Shown here: one piece after another, positions 7,138 through 47,372 of the stretch
Layout of the letters: each line of letters starts with the position of its first letter
Position numbering within the stretch: the first letter of the stretch is position 1
IMG/VR virus record: IMGVR_UViG_3300043410_000638
Coordinates: 1 to 64,000 of that record
Length of the DNA: 64,000 nucleotides
Source: a virus
Reading direction: 5' to 3' (one strand)
Notes under the pieces: generated by a model
Databases searched by the model: none
Seen by the model: the letters and a program-made list of their open reading frames with translations, nothing else
What the model was told of the DNA's origin: nothing
Translations under genes and position numbers: made by a program

Positions 7138-7635
7138 ATGGAAGACTTTGAAATCCCCATCGGTCGAGTCCCTCCCGCACATACGAGTGCGGTGTTTGCT
7201 ATGAGCGCGTTTCAGGAAGGCATCATTCCTGAAGAAAGCGCCGGCCCTCTGTCTGAAGAAGACATCGAGTGGGTCCACAATACTGTGGAGCAAGGACAGA
7301 AGACTGAGCCCGCTCCTTCCCCCGTCGCGGAACGCTACCTGCGAAATGCGTTTAGCCAGTACGATTTCGATATGCCAGTCACGCAAGAGCAGTGGCAAAA
7401 CTACGTGCTAACGCAGTGGTATCGGCAGTCCCAAGACCCTGACCCCAAAGTATCCAAATCGGCGCTTGATTCACTGGCCAAGTCCAGTGTGGTCAACCTG
7501 ATGGTGGAGAAGAAGGAAATCAGCATTACGACCAAGTCGGATGACGAGCTAAATCAGGAACTCAAGGCGTTGTTTGCCAGTTTGAAGGCAAAGACGATCG
7601 AAGGGAAAGCGGAGCGAGTGCCGAATGCTGGCTGA
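7138..7635 (+). CDS. Putative terminase small subunit, 165 aa
   Basis: Identified by position directly before TerL and by its layout: an acidic N-terminus (MEDFEIPIGRVPP), a helical centre with YLRNAFSQYDFDMPVTQEQW and WYRQSQDPDPKVSKSALDSL, and a C-terminal helix with KSDDELNQELKALFA. TerS proteins recognise the packaging site and feed DNA to TerL; no motif proves this here. Start ATG 7138 is chosen although its ribosome-binding site is weak. The end overlaps TerL by 11 bases. The 62-base gap before it may result from insertion of the HNH gene. Confidence 0.6.
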   Translation: MEDFEIPIGRVPPAHTSAVFAMSAFQEGIIPEESAGPLSEEDIEWVHNTVEQGQKTEPAPSPVAERYLRNAFSQYDFDMPVTQEQWQNYVLTQWYRQSQDPDPKVSKSALDSLAKSSVVNLMVEKKEISITTKSDDELNQELKALFASLKAKTIEGKAERVPNAG

Positions 7636-10063
7636 GCTTGAGGACATCACACCTGAGGAATATGAGGCGCTGTTAAGCGTTGCCAGCGTCGAGCAGCGGA
7701 AGCGGCTTGAATCTTTAATGGCCGAGATCAACCTCCGAAAAACCCGGGAGAGGGCGCAGCTAGAGTTCATTCCTTACGTGGAATCGGTCTGGCCAGATTT
7801 TATTTCGGGCGCCCACCACCGGAGAATTGCCAAAATCTTTGAACGCATCGCTGATGGCGAGCTCAAACGGGTGATTATCAATCTGGGGCCTCGACACACC
7901 AAATCAGAATTTGCCAGCTACCTCCTTCCAAGCTGGTTTTTTGGGCGGTTCCCCAAAAGAAAAGTCATGCAGATATCCAATACGGGTGAGCTGGCAGAAG
8001 GGTTTGGTCGTAAAGTCAGAAACTTGGTGGATTCAGATGACTATAGAAGGATTTTTCCAGCGGTCGAGCTTCGGAAGGACTCTACTGCTGCTGGCCGGTG
8101 GAATACAAATCATGGTGGGGAGTATTTTGCTGCTGGCGTGGGCGGTACTGTTACTGGCCGTGGCGCTGATCTACTCATTATTGACGATCCCCACTCAGAA
8201 GGTGAGGCGGTCCTAGCCCAGTTCAACCCTGAAATTTACGATAAAGTCTTTAGCTGGTACACATCAGGCCCACGCCAGCGTCTGCAGCCGGGCGGGGCCA
8301 TCGTGATTGTTATGTGTATGACCGGAGACACCCCGGTCCTGATGGCCAGCGGGGAAGAGAGACCCTTGCGGGATGTGCGCTCCGGCGATCTGGTGGCTAC
8401 CTTCGACAATGGCAGATTGACGACCAGTAAGGTCAATAATTGGCAGTCAAATGGTGTTGATTCCATATACAAGATACAAACACAATCTGGTAGAATACTC
8501 CGAGCAAATGAGAGACATCCGTTTCTCATAATGAACGAAGGGGTACTCGAATGGACCAGATTAAGGAACTTACGGCGGGGAGATTTACTTGTATCGTTGA
8601 AGGGTGCAACCGGCCTGCGCGAGCAAAAACCAAACCCGGAAAGTGCGGACCTTGCCAAGCCAGCGACAGCTACCACCGCAAAAACCCAAATGCCCCAAGA
8701 CGAGGGCCGGGGCACCACGGAAAATGGAAAGGTAAAACGTGCGCTGAGCCGGATTGCGAGAAGCCTGTGCACTGTGACGGGTTATGCCAAAACCATTACG
8801 CAAAAAAGTATTGGGCGGACGGAAAAGGAAGAGGGACCGCAGAGCAGCGCCGCGCACGTCGGGTCAAAAGCCGGTATGGAATCACGCTTGATGAGTATTC
8901 AGCACTGCTCAAAAAGCAAGGGGGCAGATGCGCAGTATGCGGAAATCTGCCCGGAGACAATGTTCGGGCCCATTGGGGCGGCAAACTGTGCATTGACCAT
9001 TGTCACGACACTGGAAAAGTTCGGGGTCTCCTCTGCAACGACTGCAATCTCGCCGTTGGCTATGGTAAGACAGCAGCAATACTTGAACGAGCTGCAGCGT
9101 ATCTCAGACTTCACAGCGGACCCGATAGTCTCAATAACTCCTGATGGGGAGGAAGAAGTTTTTGATGTTGAGATCGATCGCACCGAAAATTTCATTGCAA
9201 ATGGCGTTGTAAGCCACAACACCCGCTGGTCGCTCCGAGACTTAACAGGGCAGATTCTCGAGCATTCGATCGAGAAGGGTGGGGATAAGTGGGAGGTTAT
9301 TGAGTTTCCGGCGATCATGAACGAGGGTGAGCTGAACGAGAGACCTCTCTGGCCGGAATTTTGGTCGCTGAAGGAGTTGCAGGCGGTCAAAGCCGAGCTT
9401 CCACCCAGTAAGTGGGCTGCGCAGTACCAACAACAGCCGACCTCGGAAACCAATGCCATCATCAAGCGCGACTGGTGGAGAAAATGGCCTCATAAGAACC
9501 CGCCCCCGCCGGATTTTATCTTGATGACGCTCGATACGGCGTTTGAGAAGAAGAACAGTGCTGACTACTCGGCCATTGTGGTGTTCGGTGTGTGGAACAA
9601 TGATGAGGATGACGGGCAGCCTAACCTCATGTTGCTTGATGCGTACCGGGAGCGCATGGAGTTTCCTGTGTTGAAGGAGCGGCTCTTGGAGTACTACGAG
9701 GAATGGGAACCAGACTCGGTCATCATTGAGAAAAAAGCATCTGGGGCCCCGCTCATCTACGAGATGCGTCGGATGGGTGTACCGGTTGGGGAGTTTACCC
9801 CGACGAGAGGGAACGACAAGATCACCCGGCTCAACGCCGTGGCGGATATTTTTGCTTCCGGTAAGGTCTGGGCGCCCCAGACCCGGTGGGCGGATGAGCT
9901 GATTGATGAGGTGGCGAGCTTCCCCTCTGGTCGGCATGACGACTTTGTGGACTGCGTAAGCTTGGCGCTGATGCGGTTCCGTCAGGGTGGGTTTATTGGT
10001 ACGACCAAGGATGAAGAGGAAGAGAGTTTGCCGCGGTATCGGTCCAGTAGGGGCTACTATTGA
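7625..10063 (+). CDS. terL: Terminase large subunit interrupted by an intein, 812 aa precursor
   Basis: DNA-packaging ATPase and nuclease. Before the intein: an atypical Walker A, GPRHTKS (88-94), and Walker B LLIIDDPH (183-190). After it: TRWSLRDLTG (the conserved coupling motif, normally VMTRW-DDLTG), then the RNase H-like nuclease with LDTAFEKK (Asp637), VIIEKKASG (Glu702) and HDDFVDCVSLAL (Asp772/773/776). The intein occupies residues 231-532, exactly between Met and Thr of the MTRW motif. Splicing would leave about 510 residues, normal for TerL. Without splicing, the ATPase and nuclease halves would be separated by 302 residues. Confidence 0.92.
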   Translation: MLAELEDITPEEYEALLSVASVEQRKRLESLMAEINLRKTRERAQLEFIPYVESVWPDFISGAHHRRIAKIFERIADGELKRVIINLGPRHTKSEFASYLLPSWFFGRFPKRKVMQISNTGELAEGFGRKVRNLVDSDDYRRIFPAVELRKDSTAAGRWNTNHGGEYFAAGVGGTVTGRGADLLIIDDPHSEGEAVLAQFNPEIYDKVFSWYTSGPRQRLQPGGAIVIVMCMTGDTPVLMASGEERPLRDVRSGDLVATFDNGRLTTSKVNNWQSNGVDSIYKIQTQSGRILRANERHPFLIMNEGVLEWTRLRNLRRGDLLVSLKGATGLREQKPNPESADLAKPATATTAKTQMPQDEGRGTTENGKVKRALSRIARSLCTVTGYAKTITQKSIGRTEKEEGPQSSAAHVGSKAGMESRLMSIQHCSKSKGADAQYAEICPETMFGPIGAANCALTIVTTLEKFGVSSATTAISPLAMVRQQQYLNELQRISDFTADPIVSITPDGEEEVFDVEIDRTENFIANGVVSHNTRWSLRDLTGQILEHSIEKGGDKWEVIEFPAIMNEGELNERPLWPEFWSLKELQAVKAELPPSKWAAQYQQQPTSETNAIIKRDWWRKWPHKNPPPPDFILMTLDTAFEKKNSADYSAIVVFGVWNNDEDDGQPNLMLLDAYRERMEFPVLKERLLEYYEEWEPDSVIIEKKASGAPLIYEMRRMGVPVGEFTPTRGNDKITRLNAVADIFASGKVWAPQTRWADELIDEVASFPSGRHDDFVDCVSLALMRFRQGGFIGTTKDEEEESLPRYRSSRGYY
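8315..9220 (+). mobile_element. Intein in TerL, splicing domains in frame
   Basis: 302 codons. Block A starts at Cys231 (CMTGDTPVLM), with GDLVATF following. Block B is LRANERHPFL, with the expected His298 but Asn where Thr is common. Blocks F and G are VFDVEIDRTENFIANGVVSH, then Asn532, with +1 Thr in the host protein. All residues for protein splicing are present. Between about residues 328 and 505 the in-frame sequence matches no endonuclease known to me and is rich in Ser, Thr, Ala and Lys; that DNA encodes an endonuclease in another frame (8551-9144). In effect it is a mini-intein with a long linker imposed by an overlapping gene. Confidence 0.88.
8551..9144 (+). CDS. Endonuclease VII-type homing nuclease nested out of frame in the intein, 197 aa
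   Basis: Read in a different frame from TerL and lying wholly inside the intein. The C-terminal half is a typical recombination endonuclease VII/HNH domain: RYGITLDEYSALL, CAVCG (Cys127/130), CIDHCHDTGKVRGLLCNDCN (Asp149, His150, Cys162/165). The N-terminal half has two Cys-rich segments (CIVEGCNRPARAKT...CGPC and CAEPDCEKPVHCDGLCQNHY) that look like DNA-binding knuckles. The ATG at 8551 has GAAGGGG seven bases upstream, and a stop lies 14 codons upstream in this frame, so it should start here rather than continue from elsewhere. Likely role: cutting intein-free terL alleles to spread the element. Confidence 0.85.
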   Translation: MDQIKELTAGRFTCIVEGCNRPARAKTKPGKCGPCQASDSYHRKNPNAPRRGPGHHGKWKGKTCAEPDCEKPVHCDGLCQNHYAKKYWADGKGRGTAEQRRARRVKSRYGITLDEYSALLKKQGGRCAVCGNLPGDNVRAHWGGKLCIDHCHDTGKVRGLLCNDCNLAVGYGKTAAILERAAAYLRLHSGPDSLNNS

Positions 10064-16924: not shown

Positions 16925-17521
16925 ATGAACAGCATTCCTACTAATAGGGCCGACGCCAAAGCACAAGGCGCCAAACACTACTTCACAGGCAAACCATGTA
17001 AGCACGGCCATATTGCGCTACGGGAGACTAAAGGCTCCTGCGTCGAGTGTCGTAAGTTGGAGCATCAAGCAAGCTATGCGAACCGCAAAGACTACTTTGC
17101 TGACTACAACAAGTCAGACCGCGGGAAAGACAACAAGCGCAAGTATTATGAGCAAAACAAAGACGTAGTGATTGCTAAGGCTATGGCGCGGCCCACCGAA
17201 GCAAAACGTAAGTACACCAAGGTTTGGGAAGAAAAGTACCCAGAAAAGAAACGCGCAATAACGAACGCTAGGCGCAGACGGTATAAGCACGCCACACCAA
17301 AATGGCTGACCGCAGAACATAAAAAAGAAGTGCGGGAGCTTTATCTTGAGGCCCAGCGTCTCATCAAAGAAACAGGTAGAAAGTTTGAGGTTGACCATAT
17401 AGAGCCCATAATGGGTGAAGACGTATGCGGGCTTAATGTGCCATGGAACTTGCAGATTCTGCTGAAAGAAGAGAACCTAAAGAAGTCAAACAAACGGATA
17501 CGAAATGAACAAACTGGTTAA
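16925..17521 (+). CDS. HNH homing endonuclease, 198 aa
   Basis: N-terminal treble-clef-like segment GAKHYFTGKPCKHGHIALRE with a later CVECRK knuckle, a long basic middle (KRKYYEQNKDVVIAKAMARP), and the C-terminal HNH core FEVDHIEPIMGEDVCGLNVP then WNLQILLKEENLKKSNK. The DHI and WNLQ-L----N segments are those of the HNH family that marks roadside nucleases in phages. Similar in plan to the nuclease at 23077, sharing the YF-GKPC-HGH/KGH opening. It has its own promoter and lies between capsid and structural genes. Confidence 0.85.
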   Translation: MNSIPTNRADAKAQGAKHYFTGKPCKHGHIALRETKGSCVECRKLEHQASYANRKDYFADYNKSDRGKDNKRKYYEQNKDVVIAKAMARPTEAKRKYTKVWEEKYPEKKRAITNARRRRYKHATPKWLTAEHKKEVRELYLEAQRLIKETGRKFEVDHIEPIMGEDVCGLNVPWNLQILLKEENLKKSNKRIRNEQTG

Positions 17522-18531: not shown

Positions 18532-18809
18532 CACGCCCATCGCGGGGGATTGCCCCCATTCAAGAAAAGGCTAGAGGTAATGATATGGCTAAGAAAGATC
18601 CCCGTAAGGCGATGGCGCCCAAACCCGCCAAGTCTTCTATGAAAATCAAGGCAAAGGCTCCGGCAGGCGCTGTGGATGGTATGGGTCCGATGGGTCCGGC
18701 CATGGGCGGCATGGGCATGAAGAAAGGCGGCATGTGTAAAGGTTATGCAAAGGGTGGATCGATCGACGGTATCGCCCAGAAAGGCCGCACTCGCGGCAAA
18801 ATCCGATGA
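18528..18809 (+). CDS. Small Lys/Gly/Met-rich virion-linked protein, 93 aa
   Basis: Begins MTRPSRGIAPIQEKARG; basic and low-complexity, with GPMGPAMGGMGMKKGGMCKG and YAKGGSIDGIAQKGRTRGKI. The A-KGG-ID motif recurs in putative internal virion proteins 16 kb away (34744-40944). An alternative start at 18585 (MAKKDPRK) has a good ribosome-binding site. Start at 18528 overlaps the previous stop by ATGA. No function known. Confidence 0.55.
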   Translation: MTRPSRGIAPIQEKARGNDMAKKDPRKAMAPKPAKSSMKIKAKAPAGAVDGMGPMGPAMGGMGMKKGGMCKGYAKGGSIDGIAQKGRTRGKIR

Positions 18810-19468
18810 GCGGACAGTGCGCTTACGTACATTGTAAACCAGACTCCAGCGTGTTCTACGTGGGGAAAGGTACGCTAAATAGGGCCAAAAGCCTTAGAAA
18901 AGGGCGTAGAAACATCGTGCATGAGCGCACTGTAGTTAAATATGGCGCAGACAATATCGGCGTGGGTATACTGGAGTGCTCATCTGAAAGCGTTGCGTTT
19001 GAGCTTGAAAAAGGATTAATAAAGTGCTTTAGAGCTATGGGCGCCGCTCTGGTCAATATGACTGATGGCGGTGAAGGTAAGGCCGGATGCCCTAACTCTC
19101 CCGATGCTTATGTACGGACCGCAGCTAAAAATAAGGGCCAAAAGCGCTCAGAAGAGTTCAGGCAAGCACAGGCAGCTCGTATGTCGGGCAGAGTGGTCAG
19201 CGACGAAACTCGCGCTAAATTAAGTGCAATCTTTAAAGCGCGTCCGCTACCGGAGGCATTTAAAGCGCAATTAGGAAAACGATGTGGCGCAGCTAATGGA
19301 AAAGCTAGAGCGGTAATCGGATCGCATCCTGAGCATGGCACACACAGATTTGATACGCTCACAGAAGCAGCAAAATACATTAGGGGGCACACCGAGAAGG
19401 TATGTCGCGCTATCAAATTAGGCTATAAACATAAAGGGTGGACTTTTATGTACGAGGGAATCAAATAA
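18806..19468 (+). CDS. GIY-YIG homing endonuclease with NUMOD motifs, 220 aa
   Basis: N-terminal nuclease: CAYVHCKPDSSVFYVGKGTL (the GIY-YIG pair appears as AYV and YVG), with Arg in RAKSLRKGRR and the catalytic Glu in AFELEKGLIK, then TDGGEG. Next, a NUMOD3-like stretch, GQKRSEEFRQAQAARMSGRV, and a C-terminal NUMOD1-like DNA-binding part, HRFDTLTEAAKYIRGHTEKV, with AIKLGYKHKGWTF. Start and stop both overlap neighbouring genes (ATGA at 18806, TAATG at 19466), so the element sits between two structural genes without a gap. Confidence 0.85.
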   Translation: MSGQCAYVHCKPDSSVFYVGKGTLNRAKSLRKGRRNIVHERTVVKYGADNIGVGILECSSESVAFELEKGLIKCFRAMGAALVNMTDGGEGKAGCPNSPDAYVRTAAKNKGQKRSEEFRQAQAARMSGRVVSDETRAKLSAIFKARPLPEAFKAQLGKRCGAANGKARAVIGSHPEHGTHRFDTLTEAAKYIRGHTEKVCRAIKLGYKHKGWTFMYEGIK

Positions 19469-22389: not shown

Positions 22390-23087
22390 TGACCACTTCA
22401 GGCACTGCTAACTGGACACCTGATGTCACCGAGATCATTGAAGAGGCCTGCGAGCGCGCAGGCTTCGAGATCCGTACGGGTTATCAGGGGCGGACAGCGC
22501 GGCGCAGCCTCAATATCCTATTTCAGGAATGGGCCAACCGAGGGATTAACCTCTGGACCATTGAGGAAGCTGAGATCACTCTGACTCAGGGCACGGGCAC
22601 TTACAACCTCCCTGAAGATTGCGTCGACATCGTAGAGCAGGTGATCCGGCAGTATCCGGGCAGCCAAGCCAATCAGGTTGATCTGGTCATTCCGCGCATC
22701 GCGCTTCCGACCTATGCAGCAATTCCGAACAAGCTGACGCAGGGACGCCCTGTGCAGGTGTGGATCGATCGCTTGGCGCCGATCCCGCAAATCAATATCT
22801 GGCCGACTCCAAATCAGTCTGGGTATTTTTTCCATTATTGGTATCTGCGCCGAATTCAGGACGCTGGACAGGCCGGCTCTAATACATTGGACATGCCGTT
22901 CAGGTTTATACCTGCAATCATCGCTGGGCTGTCTTACCACATGGCGATAAAGAACCCTGAGTCCTACGATCGGATTCCGATGCTCAAACAGATGTATGAT
23001 GAAGCATGGCAACTGGCGGCTGACGAAGATCGTGAGAAAGCACCTATAAGGATGGTCCCTATGGCGGGATATATCAGTGGCAGATAA
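22389..23087 (+). CDS. Head-tail adaptor (P22 gp4-like neck protein), 232 aa
   Basis: TPDVTEIIEEACERAGFEIR, then RTARRSLNILFQEWANRGIN and LWTIEEAEITLTQGTGTYNL: the helical N-terminal half of podoviral adaptor proteins that dock under the portal, followed by a beta insertion and the C-terminal helices with GLSYHMAIKNPESYDRIPML. The P22 gp4-like assignment is from general resemblance and is moderately sure. Its end overlaps an HNH gene by 11 bases. Confidence 0.7.
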   Translation: MTTSGTANWTPDVTEIIEEACERAGFEIRTGYQGRTARRSLNILFQEWANRGINLWTIEEAEITLTQGTGTYNLPEDCVDIVEQVIRQYPGSQANQVDLVIPRIALPTYAAIPNKLTQGRPVQVWIDRLAPIPQINIWPTPNQSGYFFHYWYLRRIQDAGQAGSNTLDMPFRFIPAIIAGLSYHMAIKNPESYDRIPMLKQMYDEAWQLAADEDREKAPIRMVPMAGYISGR

Positions 23088-23775
23088 AGTTTTAACTAAC
23101 GCAGAAGCTAAAAGCTTAGGATTGAAGACGTACTTCAACGGTAAGCCTTGCCCTAAAGGGCATACAGCGGAGCGTTATGTAGGCGGATCATGTGTGATAT
23201 GCAGCCGAGAACGCGCAAATAAAAAGTACGTTGAGAACATAGAAAAGCGATTGGCATACGAGAAAGCTCGGTATGCACAGAACAAACTAAACCCCGAGTT
23301 TGTAACCAAAGAACGGGCGCGCAAAGCAGAATGGAAAAAGAACAACCCAGATAAAGTACGTGCACAAGAGGCTAAAGATCGCACAAACAACCCAGAAAAG
23401 TATCGAGCCAAGGCAAGAAAGTCTTATGCTAAACACAAAGAAAAAAACAAGCTTCGTTGTGTAGAATGGCGTAAAAGCAATAAAGCTCTTGTACAAGCGT
23501 ACGTTAGTGAGCGCAGGGCGTTTAGAAAAAATAGAGCTGTAAGAAGTGACGATGTTGACTACCGATGGTTCTTTAAAGAAGCACACGAGCTAGCTAAACT
23601 TAGATCTGAAGCAACGCAGGTGCCGTGGCAGTTAGATCACATTGTGCCGCTTAAAGGGCAAGAGGTCAGCGGGCTACATGTACCATGGAACATTCAAGTA
23701 ATCCCAGCGGTTGTGAATATTTCTAAGCGGAACTACTTACCTCCAGAAAGCCAACGGATAGGAGGTGGCTGGTAA
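23077..23775 (+). CDS. HNH homing endonuclease, 232 aa
   Basis: GTG start. Opening LGLKTYFNGKPCPKGHTAER with CVICSRERANKKY; long Lys/Arg/Glu-rich middle containing repeated N-P-K-R motifs; C-terminal HNH core WQLDHIVPLKGQEVSGLHVP then WNIQVIPAVVNISKRN. Related to the gene at 16925 (same GKPC-KGH opening and DHI-P...VPWN-Q end). Visibly richer in A than the flanking adaptor genes, indicating transfer. It overlaps both neighbours (11 bases, and TAATG), so it splits no gene. Confidence 0.85.
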   Translation: MADKVLTNAEAKSLGLKTYFNGKPCPKGHTAERYVGGSCVICSRERANKKYVENIEKRLAYEKARYAQNKLNPEFVTKERARKAEWKKNNPDKVRAQEAKDRTNNPEKYRAKARKSYAKHKEKNKLRCVEWRKSNKALVQAYVSERRAFRKNRAVRSDDVDYRWFFKEAHELAKLRSEATQVPWQLDHIVPLKGQEVSGLHVPWNIQVIPAVVNISKRNYLPPESQRIGGGW

Positions 23776-31274: not shown

Positions 31275-31787
31275 ATGCGAAAAGAGTCTATCACGCAGGC
31301 TGAACTAAAGGAACTTCTGGACTACGATCCTCTGACCGGGATTTTTAAGTGGAAGGTTTGTAGGGGAAGTGTAAAAACAGGTAGCACAGCGGGTCGAGTG
31401 CATCAAAAAGATGGTTACATTCAGATTAAGGTAATGAATATGCTGCACATGGCCCACCGCTTAGCTTGGCTTTACATACATGGTGTCTTTCCCCCATGTC
31501 AGCTAGATCATATTAACGGCGACAGGCGCGATAATAGAATTAACAATCTCAGAGAAGCGCCTAATAATTGCGTGGATAACGGACAAAACTTAAAAACGTA
31601 TAAGAATAATTCAGTAGGTTACGCTGGTGTTTGCTTCAGCAAAACTGTTAATAAATTCTTATCCCGTATTTGTGCAAACGGTCGCAGATATAATTTAGGT
31701 TATTTCGATACCGCGGAAGAAGCCTACGCGGCTAGGTTAGAGGCGCAAAAGCGTTTATGGCCTTTTCAACCTAAACCCAGAGACTAG
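31275..31787 (+). CDS. HNH-AP2 homing endonuclease, 170 aa
   Basis: HNH_3 core: PCQLDHINGDRRDNRINNLR (about residues 75-94), preceded by MAHRLAWLYIHG. C-terminal AP2-like part: YAGVCFSKTVNKFLSRICAN then GRRYNLGYFDTAEEAYAARL. Visibly A/T-rich compared with the fibre and tail genes around it, a sign of acquisition. It lies between the fibre gene and the tail-hub gene, two bases before the latter. Same plan as the genes at 6578, 50376 and 55484. Confidence 0.85.
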   Translation: MRKESITQAELKELLDYDPLTGIFKWKVCRGSVKTGSTAGRVHQKDGYIQIKVMNMLHMAHRLAWLYIHGVFPPCQLDHINGDRRDNRINNLREAPNNCVDNGQNLKTYKNNSVGYAGVCFSKTVNKFLSRICANGRRYNLGYFDTAEEAYAARLEAQKRLWPFQPKPRD

Positions 31788-36123: not shown

Positions 36124-36554
36124 TGAATGCAGTTGCCAAAGAACTTCCGTCGATCGATGCGATCCGGTCTAGCATGGACCAGTTCATTGAGGAGCGCGGT
36201 GTTGAGCGCGTCAATCCAGAGCCAATCCATTACCACACCGATGAGTTGTACGGCCGCCGGATCATCGTCCCTACAGGTACCGTATTCGTTACCAAGGTGC
36301 ATAAATCCGACCACATTGCGGTATGTATGCGCGGGCACATCACCATTATGGACGAGCAAGGCAACAAACGTGACGTTATTGCCCCGGATGTGGTCATCAC
36401 TCCTAAGGGTACACAGAGGTTCATTTTTGTCCATGACGAAGTCGAGTGGATAACTGTCCACCACTGCGAAGAGCAGGAGATTGAGGCGGTGGAAAAAGCT
36501 CTCGTGTGTGACACAATGGAAGAATACAACAGATTATTGGAGGCTCCGAAATGA
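36123..36554 (+). CDS. Cupin-fold protein, 143 aa
   Basis: Beta-barrel segments LYGRRIIVPTGTVFVTKVHK, HIAVCMRGHITIMDEQGNKR, and a second half VVITPKGTQRFIFVHDEVEW with ITVHHCEEQE match a small cupin. His residues (HKSDH, HH) lie where metal ligands would be. Cupins of this kind occur among phage structural genes, but no substrate is known to me. Start ATG 36123 overlaps the previous stop and its end overlaps the next gene (ATGA). Confidence 0.65.
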   Translation: MNAVAKELPSIDAIRSSMDQFIEERGVERVNPEPIHYHTDELYGRRIIVPTGTVFVTKVHKSDHIAVCMRGHITIMDEQGNKRDVIAPDVVITPKGTQRFIFVHDEVEWITVHHCEEQEIEAVEKALVCDTMEEYNRLLEAPK

Positions 36555-37390
36555 GCTTTATTGCGACAGGTCTGGGAATCGCTGGATTGATGGGCGTCGA
36601 GGGAGCTCTCGCCGCAGCCGCTACGGTAGCAATAGGAGAAGCCGCAGGCGCAGGGATAGGCGCTCTCACTAACCCAAAGGATCGTCTTAAAGGTGCTTTG
36701 ATGGGTGGCCTGACAGGCGCGGTCGGTGGGGGTATCGGTGCAGGTATCGGTGCTTTAGGTGGAGCAGCCAGCGGCGCAGCCGAAGGCGTAGCAAGCGGAG
36801 CTGTAGGTAATGCAGCTACTCAGACAGGCGGGCAAGCTGTTACACAGGCCGCGTTAACCGAGGCCCCGGGCGCAATAACCAGTCAAGGTATTGGCACGGC
36901 AGCAGGTGCTCCGGGTATCGGTATTCCTTCAGCTTTACCCGCCGCGGCTCCGGTGGCTGCGCCTGTAGCAGCCCCCGCCGCAGAAAGCTCATTGCTTGGT
37001 ACTGCAGGGTCAACTCTGACTAAAGCGGCGGCACCTAAACTCCTTGAGACGGGGCTCTCATTTGTTGGGGGCGGCGGCCAGCCAGTTTATGATAAGAGCG
37101 GACAGCAAAAAATAGGCGCTGCAAATCTGGAAGGTGCTCAGATGACGCAGGATGTTTATGGTTCTCTTCCCTCATCGTGGAAGCCTTATGGCAAAGCCAA
37201 AGGCGGTGCTATTCACCTGCGTGATGGCGATTTTATTATCCCGGCCGACGTAGTTAGCGCGATTGGTAATGGGTCGACCAAGGCTGGCGCCGAGTATCTG
37301 GATCACCTATTCAATGCATTGCGTGCAGGGCCGAAGCCGAAGGCAGGCAGTCTAGCCAAGCGCCGCGCTAAGGAAAGGCGCACTGCATGA
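36551..37390 (+). CDS. Putative internal virion protein, Gly/Ala-rich, 279 aa
   Basis: Extremely Gly/Ala-rich N-terminal half with glycine-zipper repeats (GALMGGLTGAVGGGIGAGIG and similar), then a Pro/Ala linker. The C-terminal part YGKAKGGAIHLRDGDFIIPA then DVVSAIGNGSTKAGAEYLDH parallels the end of the 34744 protein (DGEYLVPSDI). Glycine zippers can insert in membranes, so this is a good candidate for a channel-forming ejection protein. Basic C-terminal tail (KRRAKERR). Confidence 0.6.
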   Translation: MSFIATGLGIAGLMGVEGALAAAATVAIGEAAGAGIGALTNPKDRLKGALMGGLTGAVGGGIGAGIGALGGAASGAAEGVASGAVGNAATQTGGQAVTQAALTEAPGAITSQGIGTAAGAPGIGIPSALPAAAPVAAPVAAPAAESSLLGTAGSTLTKAAAPKLLETGLSFVGGGGQPVYDKSGQQKIGAANLEGAQMTQDVYGSLPSSWKPYGKAKGGAIHLRDGDFIIPADVVSAIGNGSTKAGAEYLDHLFNALRAGPKPKAGSLAKRRAKERRTA

Positions 37391-37791
37391 ACATTCAGGA
37401 AGTCCCCGTACATCTTGTAAATCAGGTTCTCCCATTGGTGGAGGACTATATCGAGAATGCGCTGGGCTACACTGAAGACTATACGATCGATGAAGCTCGA
37501 GTTTTTATTACGTCAGGGGCATGGTCTCTGATCGTTGCTTTTGATGAGCCGGGTAAATTTAAAGGTGCTGCAGCAGTGCAGTACTTCAATAAACCCCGTG
37601 ATAGGACCGCATTTATTATTGCCTTAGGTGGTAGGCTCGTTACGGGCCATGAGAATGCTGAGATCTTGTTCAATATATTTCGCGCCAATGGCGCTACGTC
37701 AGTTGAAGCTGGCGCTAGAGATGAGATCCTCCGGCTGTGGGAACGCTATGGCCTCAGGAAGAAACACACTATAATTGGCGCATCGCTTTAA
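37387..37791 (+). CDS. GNAT-like protein, 134 aa
   Basis: YIENALGYTEDYTIDEARVF, SGAWSLIVAFDEPGKFKGAA and RANGATSVEAGARDEILRLW with ERYGLRKKHTIIG resemble a small GNAT acetyltransferase fold (the final helix-strand with Y-GLRK). No clear acetyl-CoA Q/R-x-x-G-x-G/A signature is visible, so it may be inactive. T7 gp13 is a comparable GNAT-like virion-assembly protein. It starts within the previous gene's end (ATGA). Confidence 0.55.
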   Translation: MNIQEVPVHLVNQVLPLVEDYIENALGYTEDYTIDEARVFITSGAWSLIVAFDEPGKFKGAAAVQYFNKPRDRTAFIIALGGRLVTGHENAEILFNIFRANGATSVEAGARDEILRLWERYGLRKKHTIIGASL

Positions 37792-39618: not shown

Positions 39619-40944
39619 ATGAACTATCCGAATGTGATGGCTCCCGGGCCGCAGGAAATCTACGAAAGCCTGAAGATGATTCCTAACACCCCGCAAGGCA
39701 AACAGATGCTGAGCGGGCTTGTCCAGCAAGGCCAACAGACCGGCAGCGTAGAGGGCGGCATTGCCGCTGCCCTCCTCAACTCCTACAACAAGGTTCAACC
39801 CGCACCTCCTGCACCGCAGGGGACTGTGGCTAGCCAGCTTGTTGCGCAGGCTCAACCGCCTGCCCCGATGTTCGATCCCAATATGATGGGTCTTGCTGCG
39901 CCGGGTCTTGAGCAAGCAGCTCAAGCAAACCAACAGCAAATGGCTGCGGGCGGCATTGTTGCTCTGGCCGGAGGCGGCCCTGTTCGTGGTTTTGAGATCG
40001 GTGGCGAGACCAACCCATGGTTGAGCGGAATGCCAAAGATGCTTGATGCGCCTGATACACGAGCTTATGAGCAGGACCTTGCGCGTCCTAGCCCGCTTAC
40101 TAATCCGACGACTTCTCGTACGGTCGGTGCAGGTGAGTCAAGCTCTCCTAGCTATGAAGAACGCATTCAGCAATATGTCGATCTGGAAGGCGTACCGCCT
40201 GATGTAGCGGCTGAGTTGATTGCTCGCCATGACCACCAGAATGCACAGCGCAGCAAGATGAATGTCTTCGAGAACATTGCTTCTGCTCTTGGTGGTTATC
40301 TTGGCGCGACCGGTTCAGGCCAGCGCCGCGCAGGTGCAGGCATCATGTCCATGATGCAGTCTATGGGTCAGCATCAGAAAACGGAAGACCGCGAACAAGA
40401 GCTCATGGATGCCATGTATGCTAAGTCTCGTATGCTCCCTTACGAACAGCGCAGCAAAGCTCTCTCTACGATTCTTGCACAGGATCTGGCACAGAGTAAG
40501 GCCGCTCGCGAATACGCTCAGAAGCTGCGTGAACTGGAAGAAGAACGCAAGACCAGATTGCTGACGGGCGAGCAAGCGGGCAAGTATGACATCCAAAAGG
40601 CAGATATCGGGGCAGCAGCGCAGCGGTATGGCGTAGATGTTGGTGCTACCTCTCGTGAAAACGTGGCTAATATCCACGCAGACGCTATGCGTGAAGTGCA
40701 GAAGCTTAAAGCCGCAGGCGTCACTGATCTATCATCCAATAACATCACGGCGTTAGCTAAATCACTAGTCGATATGGGGTACAATCCTAAACAAGTGGAG
40801 CAAATGCTGCCTACATTAGTATCGTCAGCGCGTTCGCAGTTTAGAAACGCTGCTCCGACGCCAACTACTGGCGGCGGTTGGGGTAATCCATACCAACTTG
40901 GTAACTACCCAGCATGGCTCAGTGACGACAACCCTCAAGATTAG
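39619..40944 (+). CDS. Putative internal virion protein, 441 aa
   Basis: MNYPNVMAPGPQEIYESLKM; a GGIVALAGGGPVRGFEIGGE segment near residue 112; then coiled coil and helical regions (QYVDLEGVPPDVAAELIARH; LPYEQRSKALSTILAQDLAQ; KLRELEEERKTRLL). The Gly-Gly-Ile-Val-Ala-Leu motif is shared with other proteins of this block. The function is inferred from position before the giant lysozyme-containing protein. Confidence 0.6.
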   Translation: MNYPNVMAPGPQEIYESLKMIPNTPQGKQMLSGLVQQGQQTGSVEGGIAAALLNSYNKVQPAPPAPQGTVASQLVAQAQPPAPMFDPNMMGLAAPGLEQAAQANQQQMAAGGIVALAGGGPVRGFEIGGETNPWLSGMPKMLDAPDTRAYEQDLARPSPLTNPTTSRTVGAGESSSPSYEERIQQYVDLEGVPPDVAAELIARHDHQNAQRSKMNVFENIASALGGYLGATGSGQRRAGAGIMSMMQSMGQHQKTEDREQELMDAMYAKSRMLPYEQRSKALSTILAQDLAQSKAAREYAQKLRELEEERKTRLLTGEQAGKYDIQKADIGAAAQRYGVDVGATSRENVANIHADAMREVQKLKAAGVTDLSSNNITALAKSLVDMGYNPKQVEQMLPTLVSSARSQFRNAAPTPTTGGGWGNPYQLGNYPAWLSDDNPQD

Positions 40945-40951: not shown

Positions 40952-43900
40952 ATGGCTCGAGGCGAATTCAACCCGCTTGACTTTGGCGACCAATACGCAA
41001 TCGAGCCACCCACCAATACCGGTGGCGTATCTGAATTAGAGCAATACCTACCCCGACAAGAGGCTGCGCCGAAGGCGCCAGCCCGCGGTGGTAATGTTGC
41101 CGCTCTCCGCCATGCCTTCAATTACTTCCTCGACAAAGGATTAGCTCCGCATCAGGCGGCAGCTATTGTCGGCAATATTGCTCAGGAGTCTGGCGGGCAC
41201 TCTCGTGCTGAAGGCGGCGGCCGCACTGCGCATGATCCCTATTCTCTGGGCTATGGTCAGTGGAATCGTGAACGTCTTCACGGTGGTAAGGGCTATGTCG
41301 GTCTGATCCCATTTGCTGAAGCCATGGGTCGCCACGCAAGTGATCCTAACGTCCAGCTCGATTACATGTGGCATGAACTGCAGGGCCCTGAAAGCAAGGC
41401 TTTGAAGCAGTTGCTGGCGGCTAAGGATGTTGCAGAAGCAACCCGCGCTTTTGGTGCGTCCTATGAACGCCCGGACGAACGCTTTGCCAATTACGAGAAT
41501 CGCATTGCGCAGGCTCAGACCATGCTGCGTGGTGCGCCAGAACAGGCGCCGCAAGGGCCTCCAGCTTCTGGTATGCAGAGCTTTGAAGTCTTCGATCATG
41601 ATGCTAAGAAGCCGCGCACGCTGACCCTCCCGGCCGAGGCTGATCCAGTGCAGGCTATTCAAGCATTTCGCGAGCAGGGTAAAAATCTTGAAAGAATCAT
41701 CCCGCATGCCCTGACAAACAATAAGACGCTACGTCTATTGGAGAGCGCGGATGTGAATCAGGCGTTGGCCGAGCTGGCCAAGCAACACCCTGACCAAGAG
41801 TGGATGACCCAAGAGCACGCGGCCAAGACTGGCTTCGGTGCGGGTGCTGCCTCTGCATTCAAGAGCATTCCCTCTCTATTGCAGCGCGGTGCAGGTGAGA
41901 TTGCTGAAGAGTTCGGCCCGACTCAAGCTATGGGTCAAGAGTGGATCAAGTCTGCAAAGGAACGCCAAGCTGAGCTGGCCAAGCAGTATGAAGCACCGCT
42001 TCCGACTGATCCTCTGCTATCAAAGCTCGGCTATTATGGCGGCGCGGCTTTGGGCAGTCTTCCGGCGGCAGCTCCTGCGCTTATGGCAGGGCCGGCTGGC
42101 GTGGCCGCTATGGCGGGTACCGCGGGTCTTTCTGCCGTAGGCAGCTCTGCGCAACGCTTTGATGAGCAGGGCAAACCCTATTCAATTGCTGAACCGACTA
42201 ATCTCCTAGCTGCTCTTGGTGAGACTGCATTCCAAACCATGGGTATGCGGGCCCTCAATCCTGCTGCGGGCAAGTTCCTTGAAAGCGCCGCTAAAGGTGC
42301 TGCTGGTGCGACTGCTGCGGATATCCCGTCTGTGGCTCTTGAGCGTCTGGCCGCAGGCCAGCCTGTATCACCTGCTGATAAAGCAGCGGCTGAAGAATAC
42401 CTCGGCACCTTCATGGGTGACGTGATGGGCGGTGGTATGGTCGGCGGCGCCATGGGTCGCGCTAAGCAGCCACGTGCAGAGGTTCCGCCTCCTGCTGAAG
42501 TACCCCCGGGCGAAGCGCCTTTACCTCCTGAAGTTCCGACTGAGCCTGCCGTAAAGGCAAAGGGTAAGAAGGAAAAAGTTCTTGAGGAAGAAGGTACGGT
42601 TGAGGATCTGGCTCAGCAAGTGCTGGAAGCAGACGCTGCGCTTAAAGCTGCGCGTACTGTTCCGCCCGTTACACCCGAAGCTCAAGTTCCGGTAGAGCCC
42701 GTTACACCCGAAGCTGCGGCCATTATACCCGAACCTATTGTTGAACCGCCTGCTCCGCCAGTAGAAGCAGCGGCTGCGCCATGGCCGGTAGAAATGCTTG
42801 GGTTGAGACCTTCACAGCCGATTGCCAAGAAGCTGGAGAAGCTGGACCCGAACAACCTCGAAGATCATGCAGCGATCGATGAGCTGGTCACCAAGAACAT
42901 TCAGAACATTAATCCGACGAAAGTCATTGAGTTTGGCCAATACCTAGATGAGGTGAAGAATGCCCAGCAAATCCCCGAAGCAGGCCCGGTTGATGGCGGC
43001 CGCGGCCCACAACCCATCATTCGCGAAGAAGGTAGGGATCAAGCAGTCAGTGGCCAAGGAGTGGAACCAAGCGGACAAGGGGTCAAAGCTCCTGAAGTCA
43101 GCGGTGAAAAAGTCCAAGTCCCTGAAGAAAAAGTAGATGCTCTGATCGCCCGTGTTGGTGAAATGCAGCAGGCTAAGCCTGTAGAAGCGCCTGCGCCCGT
43201 TGAACCGCCTAAGGTAGTTGAACCTCCGAAAGCGGTTGAGCCCCCTCCTGTAGAAGCACCGAAAGCTGCCGAGCCGCCAAGTGCTGTTAAGACCCCGGAA
43301 GGCACGCTTGTCGACCATAACGGCTCTGTCTACATGGTGAAGGGTACGGCAGTTAGCAAGCTGACTTCTAAGGGTAAATTCTCTCCTTTGCATGCACAAG
43401 AGTCTGCAATTGCAAAGGTTGTTAGAGAGAAAGCTGCATCGGCAGAAATAGAGCCTCCGAAAGCGCCGGAACCCCCGGTGGTTGAGGCGGCCAAGACTAT
43501 TGAGCCAACGGCTGAAAAGGCTGTAGAACCTGCTGCACCTGTAGCAGAAGAACCTGTAGCGCCTAAAGTATCCGAACGCCCGACTGGCCCTATGGCACCT
43601 CACGTCGAGGCATGGGAAGACCTGCGCAGTCCGACTGATCCGGCATTCAGAGATATGCCTCGTGAGGCACAGGGTCTTTGGAAAGCGGCCCACATAGAAG
43701 GTGCTGATACCAAGGGTTACTTCGACGATCTCGTTGAAAAGCTGGGCCCGGTTGAACATAAGAAAGTCACGCAGGAAGAGATTGATGCTGAAACCGCCAA
43801 GACTCTAGGGGCGGAACCTGATCCTGATGTGCATCTGTATACCAAGGGCGAAGCACCTGAGCAGGCACATACTGTTGAGTCGCTGGGGCAGAAAGTTAAG

Positions 43901-46900
43901 GAAACCTTTGGTGAAGACGCGCCAGAAGTAGTGCTGTCTACTCGTGAACAAGAAGGTGTCGGCCCAGATGTCCGCGGGTTCCATGACCCCAAGACCGGGC
44001 GCACTGTGCTGATCGCTGACAATATCGACACCCGCCATAACCTCCGCGGTTTAGTACGCCATGAGGTTGCTGTTCATGCAAAGAAGCTGGGCAAGACCGA
44101 TCCTGAATTCCAAAACATTCTGAAGCAGGTCCAGACGCTGCGTGATCGTGGGGTGCAGGCCGTCAAGGATGCGTATGCCCGGGTACCGGAAGGCACACAT
44201 CCAGACCATATTCATGAAGAAGCTCTGGGTTATCTGGTCGAGCACGCAAAGAATTTGCCGGTCGTTAAACAGTTCATGTCATGGTTGCGCCGCACTGCGC
44301 ACAAATTGACGGGCAGCGCCAAGTGGTTGCGTGAAGATGATTTCGGGCCGATGGCTGATGCCATTCTGAAGCAGGGTGAAAAGGTCAAGACGGCAGCTCG
44401 CGCCGAAGGTGCAGAACCTCTCTACTCACGCCGCCACGCGGCTGAAGATGTGGAGCAGGAAGTCAAGACGATCCAATACGACAATTGGTTCGACAAGTAT
44501 TACACCCGGGCCCGGGCGGCTCTGGTCAATGCACGGTCACCGATCGAGTATGTATTGAGAGAACTTCCGCTCTACTCAAGAAACGGCAATCAGATCCGGT
44601 CAACAGCCAAAATGGCGCAGTCGACCCGTGACATCCAGATCATCAACCATGCGCTTGAGTCGGGTTACCTGTACCTCGACAAGTATGGTCTCGTTGCAAC
44701 GCGCAATGATGATGCGATCAACCCGATGAAGATCAAGGAATCGTTCCTTGCTATGGGTAAGGAAGCGCAGGACAAGTTTGCCAAGGCTATCAACACACTG
44801 GCACAGAACGGGCACAATCTCCGGGCGGAAGAACACCGCCAATTGCTTGAGGATAACCGCCGTGAACTGGCGGCAGTCGAGTCTGAGTTTTACTCTCGGC
44901 AGGATGTGCTTGATAAGCAGAAGCAAGAGATTGCGGACATTAAGGCGCTGCCGGATAAAGACATCGATGTAGACCGTCTCGAGCAATTAGAGGGTGATCA
45001 CAAGGCGCTCAAAGCAGAGCAGAAAGCTGCGCGTGATGTCATCAAGGCACGTAAGGCGCTCATCCACAATGTGGAGACCCGCTACAAAGGTGTGAAGCAT
45101 ACGAAGGATGGTAAGGTCTTCGACGTGTCAGATGAAGCTGTGGCGGAGGCCCGGGCATTCCTGAACAGCTCTCCTGAAGTTAAAGAGATGGCGCAGAATG
45201 TTCGCCAGCTCTACAAGCAGAATGCCAAACTCTTACGGGATACGGGTGTCATTTCTGACAAGACCTATCAGTCATTCATTGCTGACAAGTATGACTACGC
45301 CCCGCTCTATAAGAGCATCGAGGATCTTAATGACGATCTGGAAGGGCGTGGTGACTATTTCTTTGTCGGTGGTGGCCAGAAGCGTGTAGGTACTCCGAAG
45401 AAACTCCGGGGCGGCCGCGGCGCGGAAGACATGGATCGGGTTAACTTCCTGCAGAACATGTTCAGGCATCAGGCTAAGGTCGGTGCATGGGCTATCCACA
45501 ACAACTCAAAGCGAGCCACTCTGGCGGACCTTGCGGGAATGGGCTTTGCCAAGCGTACAGCGGCCGGCCGTATCCCGAAGGATACTGCGCATCTCGTAGC
45601 AGTCATGGAAGACGGCAAGCGGCGTTATTACCGGGTAGAAGACGACGGGCTGTTTGATGCGTATCAGATCATCAACAATGCGCCGCGCAGCAAGCTCGGC
45701 AAGATCACCCGTGCTGTCACCAAAGAGCTCAGCCAGTGGATGCTGATCGATCCGGCCTACTGGTACCGCCAGATGTGGCGCGAACCGGTCATGTCAGCCT
45801 TCATGTCAGGCGCAGGCGCTAAATCTTTCTTTGCCCCGTTCAAAGCTATGGGTGCATTGACTGAGCTGGCTACGGGTAAGGGCACTGCACGGCAGGCATA
45901 CCAAGAACTTAAAGGCCGAGGCATTTCAGGATCTCACGACTACCTGAGTGATGAGCGGTTGATCCAGCTTGGCAAAGCCAACATTGACCCTAGCACTCTG
46001 AAAGAGAAGGCAGCGTTCTATTACGATAATGCCAAGAAGCTGGGCCAAAAGGTACAGGAGAATATCGACGCTGCATCCAAGGTCACGGTCATGCGTGAGT
46101 ACGAGCAGCAGCTTCTGAAGCAGGGCATGAGCCCTGAGAAGGCACGTGAAGGTGCCATCCAACGTGTTGGCGATATGCTGAATTTTGCAAACCGAGGCAC
46201 CGCTGCATCGGCGCAATACTTCAACAGCACCATTCCGTTCTTCAACTCATGGGCTCAGGGTATGGATGCTCTCATCCGCCACGCCACGGGCTACGGGTTT
46301 GATCGGAATAGCTCTGAAGGAAAAGCGGTCATGAAGACTTTCTGGGGGCACGCCGCAGCGATGGCCGCCATGGCTACAGCCTATTCAGCTTTCATGTCCG
46401 ACAATAAGGACTACCAAAACCTGAGCGCCGAAAACCGCGCCCGTAACTGGTATGTGCCTTTACCCGGCACTAACAACCTGATGAAGATTCCAGCGGCGTT
46501 TGAAACCACGGTCTTCAAGGCAGTTCCAGAAGCTATTGTTACGGCATCGCTCGGTAAAGATCCACGTGATGCAAAAGACATGATGGTCGGCACTTTGTGG
46601 CGGGATCTGATGCCGCCCGGATCTGAATTGCCCGGTGTTCCGTATCTTGTCCGCCCGCTTCTCGAATCTGCGGTAGGCTACAAGCTATCTCTCCGCCCGG
46701 GTGAAACCCGTCCGATCGGTGATCAGTCACTGCGGCCTGAGTTGCGGGAACGCGGTAAGTCAGCGGCAGCCGACTTCTTCTCTGACGTTACTGGCGGCGC
46801 TGTTTCTCCGGCCACGCTTCGTTATCTGGCTACGGGTTACACACCGTCAATCGCCAAGGTTGGCGAGCTTGCGGCCAAGGGTATTGCAGCAGGTGTTACC

Positions 46901-47305
46901 TCTGCGTTTGGTCAGCCTGATGGCAGGCAGCAGATCAGAGATATAGTGGACCTCGCTCGGGACATCACTGGTGCTATCTCCAATCCTGATATGGTCGACC
47001 GGTCACGGGCGTACGAGTTTGCTGCAGAGCAAGCACTCAATGCGCACAGCGCCAGATATGCACAGCGCCACGGTTTTGAGGGGGTTGCTGATAAGTTCAG
47101 GGAAGAAGGTCGCTACGCCAAGGCGGCTCAGAATCTCAAGAGTGTTCTCTCTACACTGCAGATGCAGGAAGACCGCATCAAGAACAGCAAGGACTATAAG
47201 AGCGCGGAAGCGGCTGAGAAGGATCTGCAAGAGGTGATTGCGCGTAGGCGGGAGATCACCAAGAGCTTGGAAGATTTGGAAAAGAGAGCGAGCGAAGAGG
47301 AATAA
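40952..47305 (+). CDS. Giant multidomain virion protein with lysozyme domain, 2117 aa
   Basis: Residues about 47-200 are a phage-tail-lysozyme-type peptidoglycan hydrolase: AFNYFLDKGLAPHQAAAIVG then NIAQESGGHSRAEGG (the Glu in QESGG is the likely catalyst) and SLGYGQWN. A Gly/Ala hydrophobic segment near 360-400 could cross membranes. About 500-920 is Pro/Glu/Val-rich linker. Near 1033-1046, LVRHEVAVHAKKLG resembles the HExxxH metallopeptidase-like motif of phage polyvalent proteins. The C-terminal part (about 1608-1960: MWREPVMSAFMSGAG, RVGDMLNFANRGTAASAQYF) looks like the polyvalent-protein domain LPD38. Likely ejected to open the cell wall and act in the host. Confidence 0.8.
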   Translation: MARGEFNPLDFGDQYAIEPPTNTGGVSELEQYLPRQEAAPKAPARGGNVAALRHAFNYFLDKGLAPHQAAAIVGNIAQESGGHSRAEGGGRTAHDPYSLGYGQWNRERLHGGKGYVGLIPFAEAMGRHASDPNVQLDYMWHELQGPESKALKQLLAAKDVAEATRAFGASYERPDERFANYENRIAQAQTMLRGAPEQAPQGPPASGMQSFEVFDHDAKKPRTLTLPAEADPVQAIQAFREQGKNLERIIPHALTNNKTLRLLESADVNQALAELAKQHPDQEWMTQEHAAKTGFGAGAASAFKSIPSLLQRGAGEIAEEFGPTQAMGQEWIKSAKERQAELAKQYEAPLPTDPLLSKLGYYGGAALGSLPAAAPALMAGPAGVAAMAGTAGLSAVGSSAQRFDEQGKPYSIAEPTNLLAALGETAFQTMGMRALNPAAGKFLESAAKGAAGATAADIPSVALERLAAGQPVSPADKAAAEEYLGTFMGDVMGGGMVGGAMGRAKQPRAEVPPPAEVPPGEAPLPPEVPTEPAVKAKGKKEKVLEEEGTVEDLAQQVLEADAALKAARTVPPVTPEAQVPVEPVTPEAAAIIPEPIVEPPAPPVEAAAAPWPVEMLGLRPSQPIAKKLEKLDPNNLEDHAAIDELVTKNIQNINPTKVIEFGQYLDEVKNAQQIPEAGPVDGGRGPQPIIREEGRDQAVSGQGVEPSGQGVKAPEVSGEKVQVPEEKVDALIARVGEMQQAKPVEAPAPVEPPKVVEPPKAVEPPPVEAPKAAEPPSAVKTPEGTLVDHNGSVYMVKGTAVSKLTSKGKFSPLHAQESAIAKVVREKAASAEIEPPKAPEPPVVEAAKTIEPTAEKAVEPAAPVAEEPVAPKVSERPTGPMAPHVEAWEDLRSPTDPAFRDMPREAQGLWKAAHIEGADTKGYFDDLVEKLGPVEHKKVTQEEIDAETAKTLGAEPDPDVHLYTKGEAPEQAHTVESLGQKVKETFGEDAPEVVLSTREQEGVGPDVRGFHDPKTGRTVLIADNIDTRHNLRGLVRHEVAVHAKKLGKTDPEFQNILKQVQTLRDRGVQAVKDAYARVPEGTHPDHIHEEALGYLVEHAKNLPVVKQFMSWLRRTAHKLTGSAKWLREDDFGPMADAILKQGEKVKTAARAEGAEPLYSRRHAAEDVEQEVKTIQYDNWFDKYYTRARAALVNARSPIEYVLRELPLYSRNGNQIRSTAKMAQSTRDIQIINHALESGYLYLDKYGLVATRNDDAINPMKIKESFLAMGKEAQDKFAKAINTLAQNGHNLRAEEHRQLLEDNRRELAAVESEFYSRQDVLDKQKQEIADIKALPDKDIDVDRLEQLEGDHKALKAEQKAARDVIKARKALIHNVETRYKGVKHTKDGKVFDVSDEAVAEARAFLNSSPEVKEMAQNVRQLYKQNAKLLRDTGVISDKTYQSFIADKYDYAPLYKSIEDLNDDLEGRGDYFFVGGGQKRVGTPKKLRGGRGAEDMDRVNFLQNMFRHQAKVGAWAIHNNSKRATLADLAGMGFAKRTAAGRIPKDTAHLVAVMEDGKRRYYRVEDDGLFDAYQIINNAPRSKLGKITRAVTKELSQWMLIDPAYWYRQMWREPVMSAFMSGAGAKSFFAPFKAMGALTELATGKGTARQAYQELKGRGISGSHDYLSDERLIQLGKANIDPSTLKEKAAFYYDNAKKLGQKVQENIDAASKVTVMREYEQQLLKQGMSPEKAREGAIQRVGDMLNFANRGTAASAQYFNSTIPFFNSWAQGMDALIRHATGYGFDRNSSEGKAVMKTFWGHAAAMAAMATAYSAFMSDNKDYQNLSAENRARNWYVPLPGTNNLMKIPAAFETTVFKAVPEAIVTASLGKDPRDAKDMMVGTLWRDLMPPGSELPGVPYLVRPLLESAVGYKLSLRPGETRPIGDQSLRPELRERGKSAAADFFSDVTGGAVSPATLRYLATGYTPSIAKVGELAAKGIAAGVTSAFGQPDGRQQIRDIVDLARDITGAISNPDMVDRSRAYEFAAEQALNAHSARYAQRHGFEGVADKFREEGRYAKAAQNLKSVLSTLQMQEDRIKNSKDYKSAEAAEKDLQEVIARRREITKSLEDLEKRASEEE

Positions 47306-47334
47306 AAAAGGCCCCGGGAGGAGATACCGGGGCC
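47304..47334 (-). terminator. Intrinsic terminator of the leftward replication arm
   Basis: Read leftward: GGCCCCGG, loop TATCTCCTC, CCGGGGCC then TTTTTT (the A-run 47304-47309). It is placed just after the primase-helicase stop, overlapping the last bases of the rightward 2117-residue gene. In the rightward direction there is no U-run, so it mainly ends leftward transcripts where the arms converge. Confidence 0.8.
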
Positions 47335-47372
47335 AGAGCACATTCCTGCTAAGTCGCTTGCACTGTCAGGCG

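What the first reader, a model, noticed from the sequence alone, without database searches (positions are those of the whole stretch)
40952..47305. 2117-residue polyvalent virion protein
One chain combines a tail-lysozyme domain, a hydrophobic Gly/Ala segment, a 400-residue Pro/Glu linker, an HEVAVH metallopeptidase-like motif and a C-terminal region resembling LPD38. Polyvalent proteins are thought to be injected and to act on the host. It would act both as wall-opening enzyme and as effector.
Basis: partly seen in the sequence, partly recalled or inferred. Interest (0 to 1): 0.6.

Follow-up and report, generated by a model that had tools for sequence, protein, structure and literature searches.

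The report
Short-tailed phage's wall-opening ejection protein
This is one very large protein that a short-tailed virus of bacteria probably packs in its head and pushes into the host ahead of its DNA, carrying a cell-wall-cutting enzyme at one end, a probable self-cutting zinc protease in the middle and a delivery module at the other end; it is a good new example of a class already described in 2017, not a new class.

Summary
One intact 2117-codon ORF (40952-47305, +) carries Phage_lysozyme2 (aa 53-191, E 3.8e-26) and a true LPD38 (aa 1819-1976, E 1.7e-13). Between them lie a Gly/Ala-rich segment, a Pro/Glu linker and a probable zincin. The HEVAVH motif is not the classical HExxH but the HExxxH variant already described for polyvalent proteins. 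H1037, E1038, H1042 and a downstream E1090 are the only invariant residues in 28 divergent relatives, and the model gives the minimal zincin fold order. An ortholog with the same architecture and synteny exists (L117). In close relatives the N-terminal slot holds unrelated wall enzymes: lysozyme here, lambda-type lysozyme in L005, SLT transglycosylase in L087. The 720-aa C-terminal module occurs in phages known to be short-tailed. In a CRISPRi study a homolog (PTXU04 gp25) was needed for infection. By mass spectrometry a similar giant (JC1 gp69) is a virion protein. Best reading: an ejection protein, T7 gp16-like in role, of a short-tailed phage. New member of a known kind.

The parts
40952..47305 (+). 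2117-aa polyvalent ejection protein
   Evidence: ortholog L117 2095 aa; ribosome-binding-site-like AGGTGA
41108..41524 (+). N-terminal lysozyme domain, Phage_lysozyme2 (aa 53-191)
   Evidence: PF18013 E 3.8e-26; swapped for lambda-type lysozyme in L005 and SLT in L087
42014..42466 (+). Gly/Ala-rich segment (aa 355-505), possible membrane-active part
   Evidence: composition, no classical transmembrane helix, part of the region aligned with L117 and L005
42464..43831 (+). Pro/Glu-rich linker (aa 505-960)
   Evidence: 28.7% Pro+Glu; aa 750-950 among the least conserved parts vs L117
42794..43111 (+). conserved element inside the linker (aa 615-720), unknown role
   Evidence: 37-49% identity in L117, L005, L087
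43820..44434 (+). zincin-like HExxxH metallopeptidase domain (aa 957-1161)
   Evidence: alignment A9, model pLDDT 77.8 with most core blocks 80-98, own-family HMM
44060..44077 (+). HEVAVH motif (aa 1037-1042)
   Evidence: H, E, H invariant in 28 sequences
44219..44221 (+). codon of E1090, predicted third zinc ligand
   Evidence: invariant in 28 sequences; lies in a helix after the motif helix
45131..47293 (+). C-terminal module (aa 1394-2114), mostly helical, shared with short-tailed phages
   Evidence: alignment A6, model, HMM hits in PTXU04, Pag-Yong1, Pascal, FGH, phiARM81mr, HTVC010P
46406..46879 (+). LPD38 domain within the C-terminal module (aa 1819-1976)
   Evidence: PF18857 E 1.7e-13
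36551..37390 (+). 279-aa Gly-zipper-like protein of the same cassette (candidate small ejection protein)
   Evidence: weak Gly-zipper match E 9e-4, below the Pfam cut-off; homologs upstream of LPD38 giants in other contigs
37387..37791 (+). 134-aa cassette protein
   Evidence: homologs upstream of giants in L112, L070, L096, L117, L119
37737..39608 (+). 623-aa Gln/Ala-rich cassette protein (candidate second ejection protein)
   Evidence: homologs upstream of giants in many further contigs
39619..40944 (+). 441-aa cassette protein directly before the giant (candidate ejection protein)
   Evidence: homologs in the same place in L117, L005, L087

Best explanation
It is an internal virion ('ejection') protein of a short-tailed phage, the functional counterpart of T7 gp16 and of the N4 virion RNA polymerase chain, built on the LPD38 C-terminal module. 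Proposed sequence: (1) the C-terminal module packs the chain in the head and takes part in its ejection (inferred from conservation and from the N4 precedent); (2) on infection the chain leaves the head before or with the DNA together with the three or four proteins encoded just upstream (inferred from synteny and the T7/N4 precedent); (3) the N-terminal lysozyme opens the peptidoglycan locally (the domain is shown, its activity inferred); (4) the Gly/Ala-rich part helps to cross or line the envelope (weak inference); (5) the HExxxH metallopeptidase cuts the chain itself to free the wall enzyme or the C-terminal part, or less likely cuts a host protein (active-site signature and fold order shown; substrate unknown).
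For: Lysozyme and LPD38 matches. Different muralytic domains at the same N-terminal slot in the closest relatives: lambda-type lysozyme in L005 (E 8.6e-10 to 1am7), SLT in L087 (E 4.5e-19), PF18013-type in ortholog L117. C-terminal module in Planktothrix phage Pag-Yong1, whose portal and terminase match this phage's and whose giant at the same place is annotated 'large polyvalent protein', and in phages reported as short-tailed: E. coli PTXU04 (podovirus by electron microscopy) and Bacillus podophage Pascal. PTXU04 gp25 carries both modules and its knock-down causes a large drop in plaquing (PMC11879866). Burkholderia podovirus JC1 gp69, with an N-terminal lytic-transglycosylase-like domain and a C-terminal LPD38, was found in purified virions with 51 unique peptides (PMC9144972). 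Upstream cassette genes recur next to such giants. Among the ORFs searched, the only matches to tape-measure families were through the lysozyme domain. N4 virion RNA polymerase has a zincin-type domain followed by a large helical domain (PMC12633501), the same order as here.
Against: No direct evidence that this protein is in the virion. No detectable sequence relation to solved T7 or N4 ejection proteins. The C-terminal model is of low confidence and matches no solved structure. No classical transmembrane helix. The protease fold search gave no significant solved zincin. Not every relative with a similar portal has the module: no match in the HTVC027P or HTVC023P candidates or in the Caulobacter phage RW proteins tested. 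Not all ORFs of the window were searched against families.
Confidence: 0.68

Rival explanations
1. Injected effector first: the metallopeptidase cuts host defence or regulatory proteins after entry, and the lysozyme only helps entry.
For: The metallopeptidase is the most conserved part of the chain (76% vs L005 over aa 1001-1050) and is kept at 55% in L119, whose C-terminal module is only 22% identical. It also occurs in L088, which has no detectable C-terminal module. PTXU04 gp25 was among the genes reported toxic or interfering when expressed in E. coli. Other giants carry ART, DdrB-ParB, RadC or helicase-methylase domains.
Against: No other effector domain recognised here. Phage P1 DdrB is proteolytically processed and its own metallopeptidase is proposed, not shown, to do this (PMC5512222).
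Confidence: 0.2
2. Tape-measure or tail protein of a long-tailed phage with a built-in lysozyme.
For: The lysozyme domain's best PHROG matches are tape-measure proteins.
Against: Those matches stop at the lysozyme domain. The C-terminal module occurs in phages reported as short-tailed. Portal relatives include Pelagibacter HTVC023P and HTVC027P, whose 'P' suffix denotes podovirus by naming habit (the habit is from my own knowledge).
Confidence: 0.05
3. The metallopeptidase is a degenerate, purely structural domain; only the lysozyme is an enzyme.
For: The extra residue in HExxxH moves the second His by one helix position; no significant structural match to a solved zincin; the C-terminal module occurs without it in Pascal (no HExxH or HExxxH).
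Against: Only the four predicted catalytic residues are invariant across 28 sequences at 13-53% identity to this one, the pattern of an active enzyme; HEXXXH is an accepted variant in the polyvalent-protein survey.
Confidence: 0.12

Closest known systems
PTXU04 gp25 / Pondi giant (Xuquatrovirus, E. coli podovirus)
   Same: About 2200 aa; HExxxH metallopeptidase about 1037 aa before the C terminus; LPD38 C-terminal module; last large gene of the virion module
   Different: No lysozyme match at the N terminus (Pondi); about 21% identical in the C-terminal part
JC1 gp69 (Bcep22-like DarB-like giant)
   Same: N-terminal wall enzyme and C-terminal LPD38; shown in virions by mass spectrometry
   Different: 4515 aa; methylase-helicase and LPD3 cargo; lytic-transglycosylase-like rather than PF18013 lysozyme (from PMC9144972; sequence not held here)
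T7 gp16
   Same: N-terminal peptidoglycan hydrolase, large remainder, member of an ejection-protein set
   Different: No detectable sequence relation in searches of solved structures; no metallopeptidase domain mentioned in the passages of the T7 review read here
N4 virion RNA polymerase (gp50)
   Same: Zincin-type domain followed by a large helical C-terminal domain; ejected giant
   Different: HExxH instead of HExxxH; carries an RNA polymerase domain, absent here; no lysozyme mentioned in the passages read
Phage P1 DdrB
   Same: Head protein with a predicted C-terminal zincin, proteolytically processed
   Different: Myovirus, ParB cargo, no LPD38 reported; comparison from the literature only

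Membership tests
Polyvalent proteins (Iyer et al. 2017) | Several domains of disparate activity in one chain | tested here: met
   lysozyme plus metallopeptidase plus LPD38
Polyvalent proteins (Iyer et al. 2017) | Encoded among late virion genes of a phage | tested here: met
   last gene of the + strand structural run after terminase, portal, capsid
Polyvalent proteins (Iyer et al. 2017) | Delivered into the host with the DNA | not testable with these tools
   needs virion proteomics and a translocation assay
Phage_lysozyme2 PF18013 | Score above the curated cut-off | tested here: met
   92.4 bits vs 28.2, profile positions 4-136 of 140
LPD38 PF18857 | Score above the curated cut-off | tested here: met
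   51.6 bits vs 27, profile positions 2-170 of 189
Polyvalent zincin, HEXXXH variant | HExxxH plus a downstream Glu on a second helix, conserved | tested here: met
   four invariant positions in 28 sequences
Polyvalent zincin, HEXXXH variant | Helix, three short strands, motif helix, Glu helix | tested here: met
   model mab23563ec037 secondary structure; there are additional helices between the motif helix and the Glu helix
Polyvalent zincin, HEXXXH variant | Structural match to a solved zincin | tested here: inconclusive
   no match below E 1; anthrax lethal factor entries recur at E 2.7-4.1, not significant
Polyvalent zincin, HEXXXH variant | Zinc binding and proteolysis | not testable with these tools
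   bench assay needed
T7 gp16-type ejection protein | N-terminal wall hydrolase in a cassette of candidate ejection-protein genes | tested here: met
   that the neighbours are ejection proteins is inferred
T7 gp16-type ejection protein | Sequence homology to gp16 | tested here: not met
   no match of the chain or of the C-terminal profile among PDB sequences; presence of gp16 entries in that copy was not checked. So 'works like', not 'is a', gp16
N4 virion RNA polymerase | Single-chain RNA polymerase domain | tested here: not met
   no RNA polymerase match in Pfam or PHROGs

The most novel reading that the evidence does not exclude
The roughly 720-aa LPD38 C-terminal module is a so far unrecognised general ejection or packaging chassis of a large, unrelated-looking set of short-tailed phages (E. 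coli, Vibrio, Pelagibacter, cyanobacterial and Bacillus phages), onto which wall enzymes and effectors are plugged. The HExxxH protease, in front of it, separates chassis from cargo after passage through the tail.
Probability: 0.35. Interest if true: 0.55.

Novelty: new member of a known kind. Interest (0 to 1): 0.36.

Why it matters
How short-tailed phages carry very large proteins and DNA across the envelope is still poorly understood, and LPD38 has had no assigned role beyond co-occurrence. Different wall enzymes at one slot, a protease with an invariant active site, and a C-terminal part kept across distant short-tailed phages turn this into a testable division of labour (cargo, cutter, carrier). 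A laboratory E. coli phage, PTXU04, already carries the cutter and the carrier.

Tried and rejected
Single-protein scans of viral contigs with the whole chain or its C-terminal part found nothing; alignment-based scans worked. A scan of the species-genome collection with the close-lineage protease alignment found no relative, so no host can be named. PDB sequence searches with the protease and C-terminal profiles gave only chance matches. Foldseek of both models against PDB gave nothing significant; the recurrence of anthrax lethal factor among weak hits agrees with the published zincin link but is not evidence on its own. The classical HExxH reading was rejected: the spacing is HExxxH. The tape-measure reading was rejected. 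Bcep22 could not be fetched, so the JC1 comparison rests on the paper. A Kyte-Doolittle transmembrane search was negative.

Full report
The reading frame. Window 40952-47305 (+) is an uninterrupted 2117-codon ORF preceded by a Shine-Dalgarno-like AGGTGA. It is the last gene of a + strand run holding terminase, portal, capsid and tail-fibre-like genes; replication genes follow on the - strand. The window is part of a 68,984-base virus record.

Domains. Pfam gives two families well above their curated cut-offs: Phage_lysozyme2 (aa 53-191, E 3.8e-26) and LPD38 (aa 1819-1976, E 1.7e-13). Between them are a Gly/Ala-rich stretch (aa 355-505), a Pro/Glu-rich linker (aa 505-960, 28.7% Pro+Glu) and the HEVAVH region. 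Pfam and PHROGs recognised nothing in that middle part.

The metallopeptidase. HEVAVH is HExxxH, one residue longer than the classical motif. One such motif in a protein of this composition has a 7% chance, so I tested conservation. In 28 HExxxH regions from viral contigs, the others 13-53% identical to this one, exactly four positions are invariant: H1037, E1038, H1042 and E1090. AlphaFold on that alignment gives pLDDT 77.8 (most core blocks 80-98) and the order helix, three short strands, motif helix, later helix with the Glu, the minimal zincin core described by Iyer et al. 2017 (PMC5512222), who also report HEXXXH as a polyvalent-protein variant. Foldseek found no significant solved relative, so the fold assignment rests on signature and topology.

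Relatives. L117, from a 67.8-kb viral contig, is a full ortholog: 2095 aa, 45% identical over aa 1-716 and 40% over aa 962-2117, with the neighbours from 34744 to the - strand primase-like gene in the same order. L005 (2134 aa) is 39% identical in the C-terminal half, but its N-terminal domain is a lambda-type lysozyme (1am7, E 8.6e-10). L087 has an SLT transglycosylase (E 4.5e-19) in that place and ADP-ribosyltransferase domains (two stretches) further in. L119 has no sequence aligned with the first 250 residues here, keeps the protease at 55% identity, yet is only 22% identical in the C-terminal part. L088 has the protease but no detectable C-terminal module. So wall enzyme, protease and C-terminal module are exchangeable units. 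The wall-enzyme slot is refilled by different enzymes of like activity, good indirect evidence that wall cutting is what the slot is for.

The C-terminal module. The last 720 residues align across 34 giants. 30 of 31 full-length ones carry HExxH or HExxxH, against 1.4 expected by shuffling. A tblastn with the Achromobacter phage CF418P1 module finds 51 phage records, including Vibrio, Pelagibacter, cyanobacterial, E. coli and Bacillus phages. Those whose morphology I could check are short-tailed: PTXU04 by electron microscopy (PMC6563267) and Bacillus podophage Pascal (PMC4319499). Pascal has the module without any HExxH or HExxxH, so the module does not depend on the protease. The predicted structure is mostly helical but of low confidence (pLDDT 61), without a match in the PDB.

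Experimental anchors from relatives. PTXU04 gp25 holds both the C-terminal module (E 4e-204) and the HExxxH protease (E 7e-25); targeting it causes a large reduction in plaquing, and it was among the genes reported toxic or interfering when expressed in E. coli (PMC11879866). JC1 gp69, a podovirus giant with an N-terminal lytic-transglycosylase-like domain and a C-terminal LPD38, was found in CsCl-purified virions with 51 unique peptides (PMC9144972). In N4, the ejected RNA polymerase chain has a zincin-type domain followed by a large helical domain (PMC12633501), the same order as here.

How it most likely works. Shown: domain content, active-site conservation, slot exchange, synteny, and the two published facts on relatives. 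Inferred: packaging in the head, ejection with the DNA, local wall digestion, and self-processing by the protease.

Novelty. The class, the HEXXXH variant, LPD38 and lysozyme fusions were all described in 2017, and a wall-enzyme plus LPD38 giant is known from JC1. This is a new member. What seems fresh is the comparison: replacement of the wall enzyme by different enzyme types within one close lineage, and the C-terminal module as a recurrent part of short-tailed phages.

Noticed in passing
window 7625-10063 (aa about 229-532 of the terminase): The large terminase is interrupted by a roughly 290-residue intein (Intein_splicing E 2.8e-16, Hint E 2.8e-5).
   Followed up: partly
window 16925-17521, 18806-19468, 23077-23775, 31275-31787: Several endonuclease genes scattered through the structural module: two endonuclease VII-like, one homing endonuclease, one HNH.
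   Followed up: no
window 42794-43111: A conserved element of about 105 residues inside the otherwise variable Pro/Glu linker, 37-49% identical in three relatives, without a family match.
   Followed up: partly
window 47309-47335: A strong GC hairpin (GGCCCCGG...CCGGGGCC) just after the giant's stop codon with an A-run on its left: looks like a terminator for the opposite (-) strand operon; not reported by the consensus scan.
   Followed up: no
L119 and L088: The HExxxH protease stays 42-55% identical while the C-terminal part is only 22% identical or undetectable: the protease seems to travel as its own unit.
   Followed up: partly
L114 3-8321 (Planktothrix phage Pag-Yong1): A cyanophage with a related portal and terminase has a 2772-aa giant with the same C-terminal module and a classical HExxH about 1056 aa before its end.
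   Followed up: partly
window 1-64000: No tRNA and no Rfam family match.
   Followed up: yes
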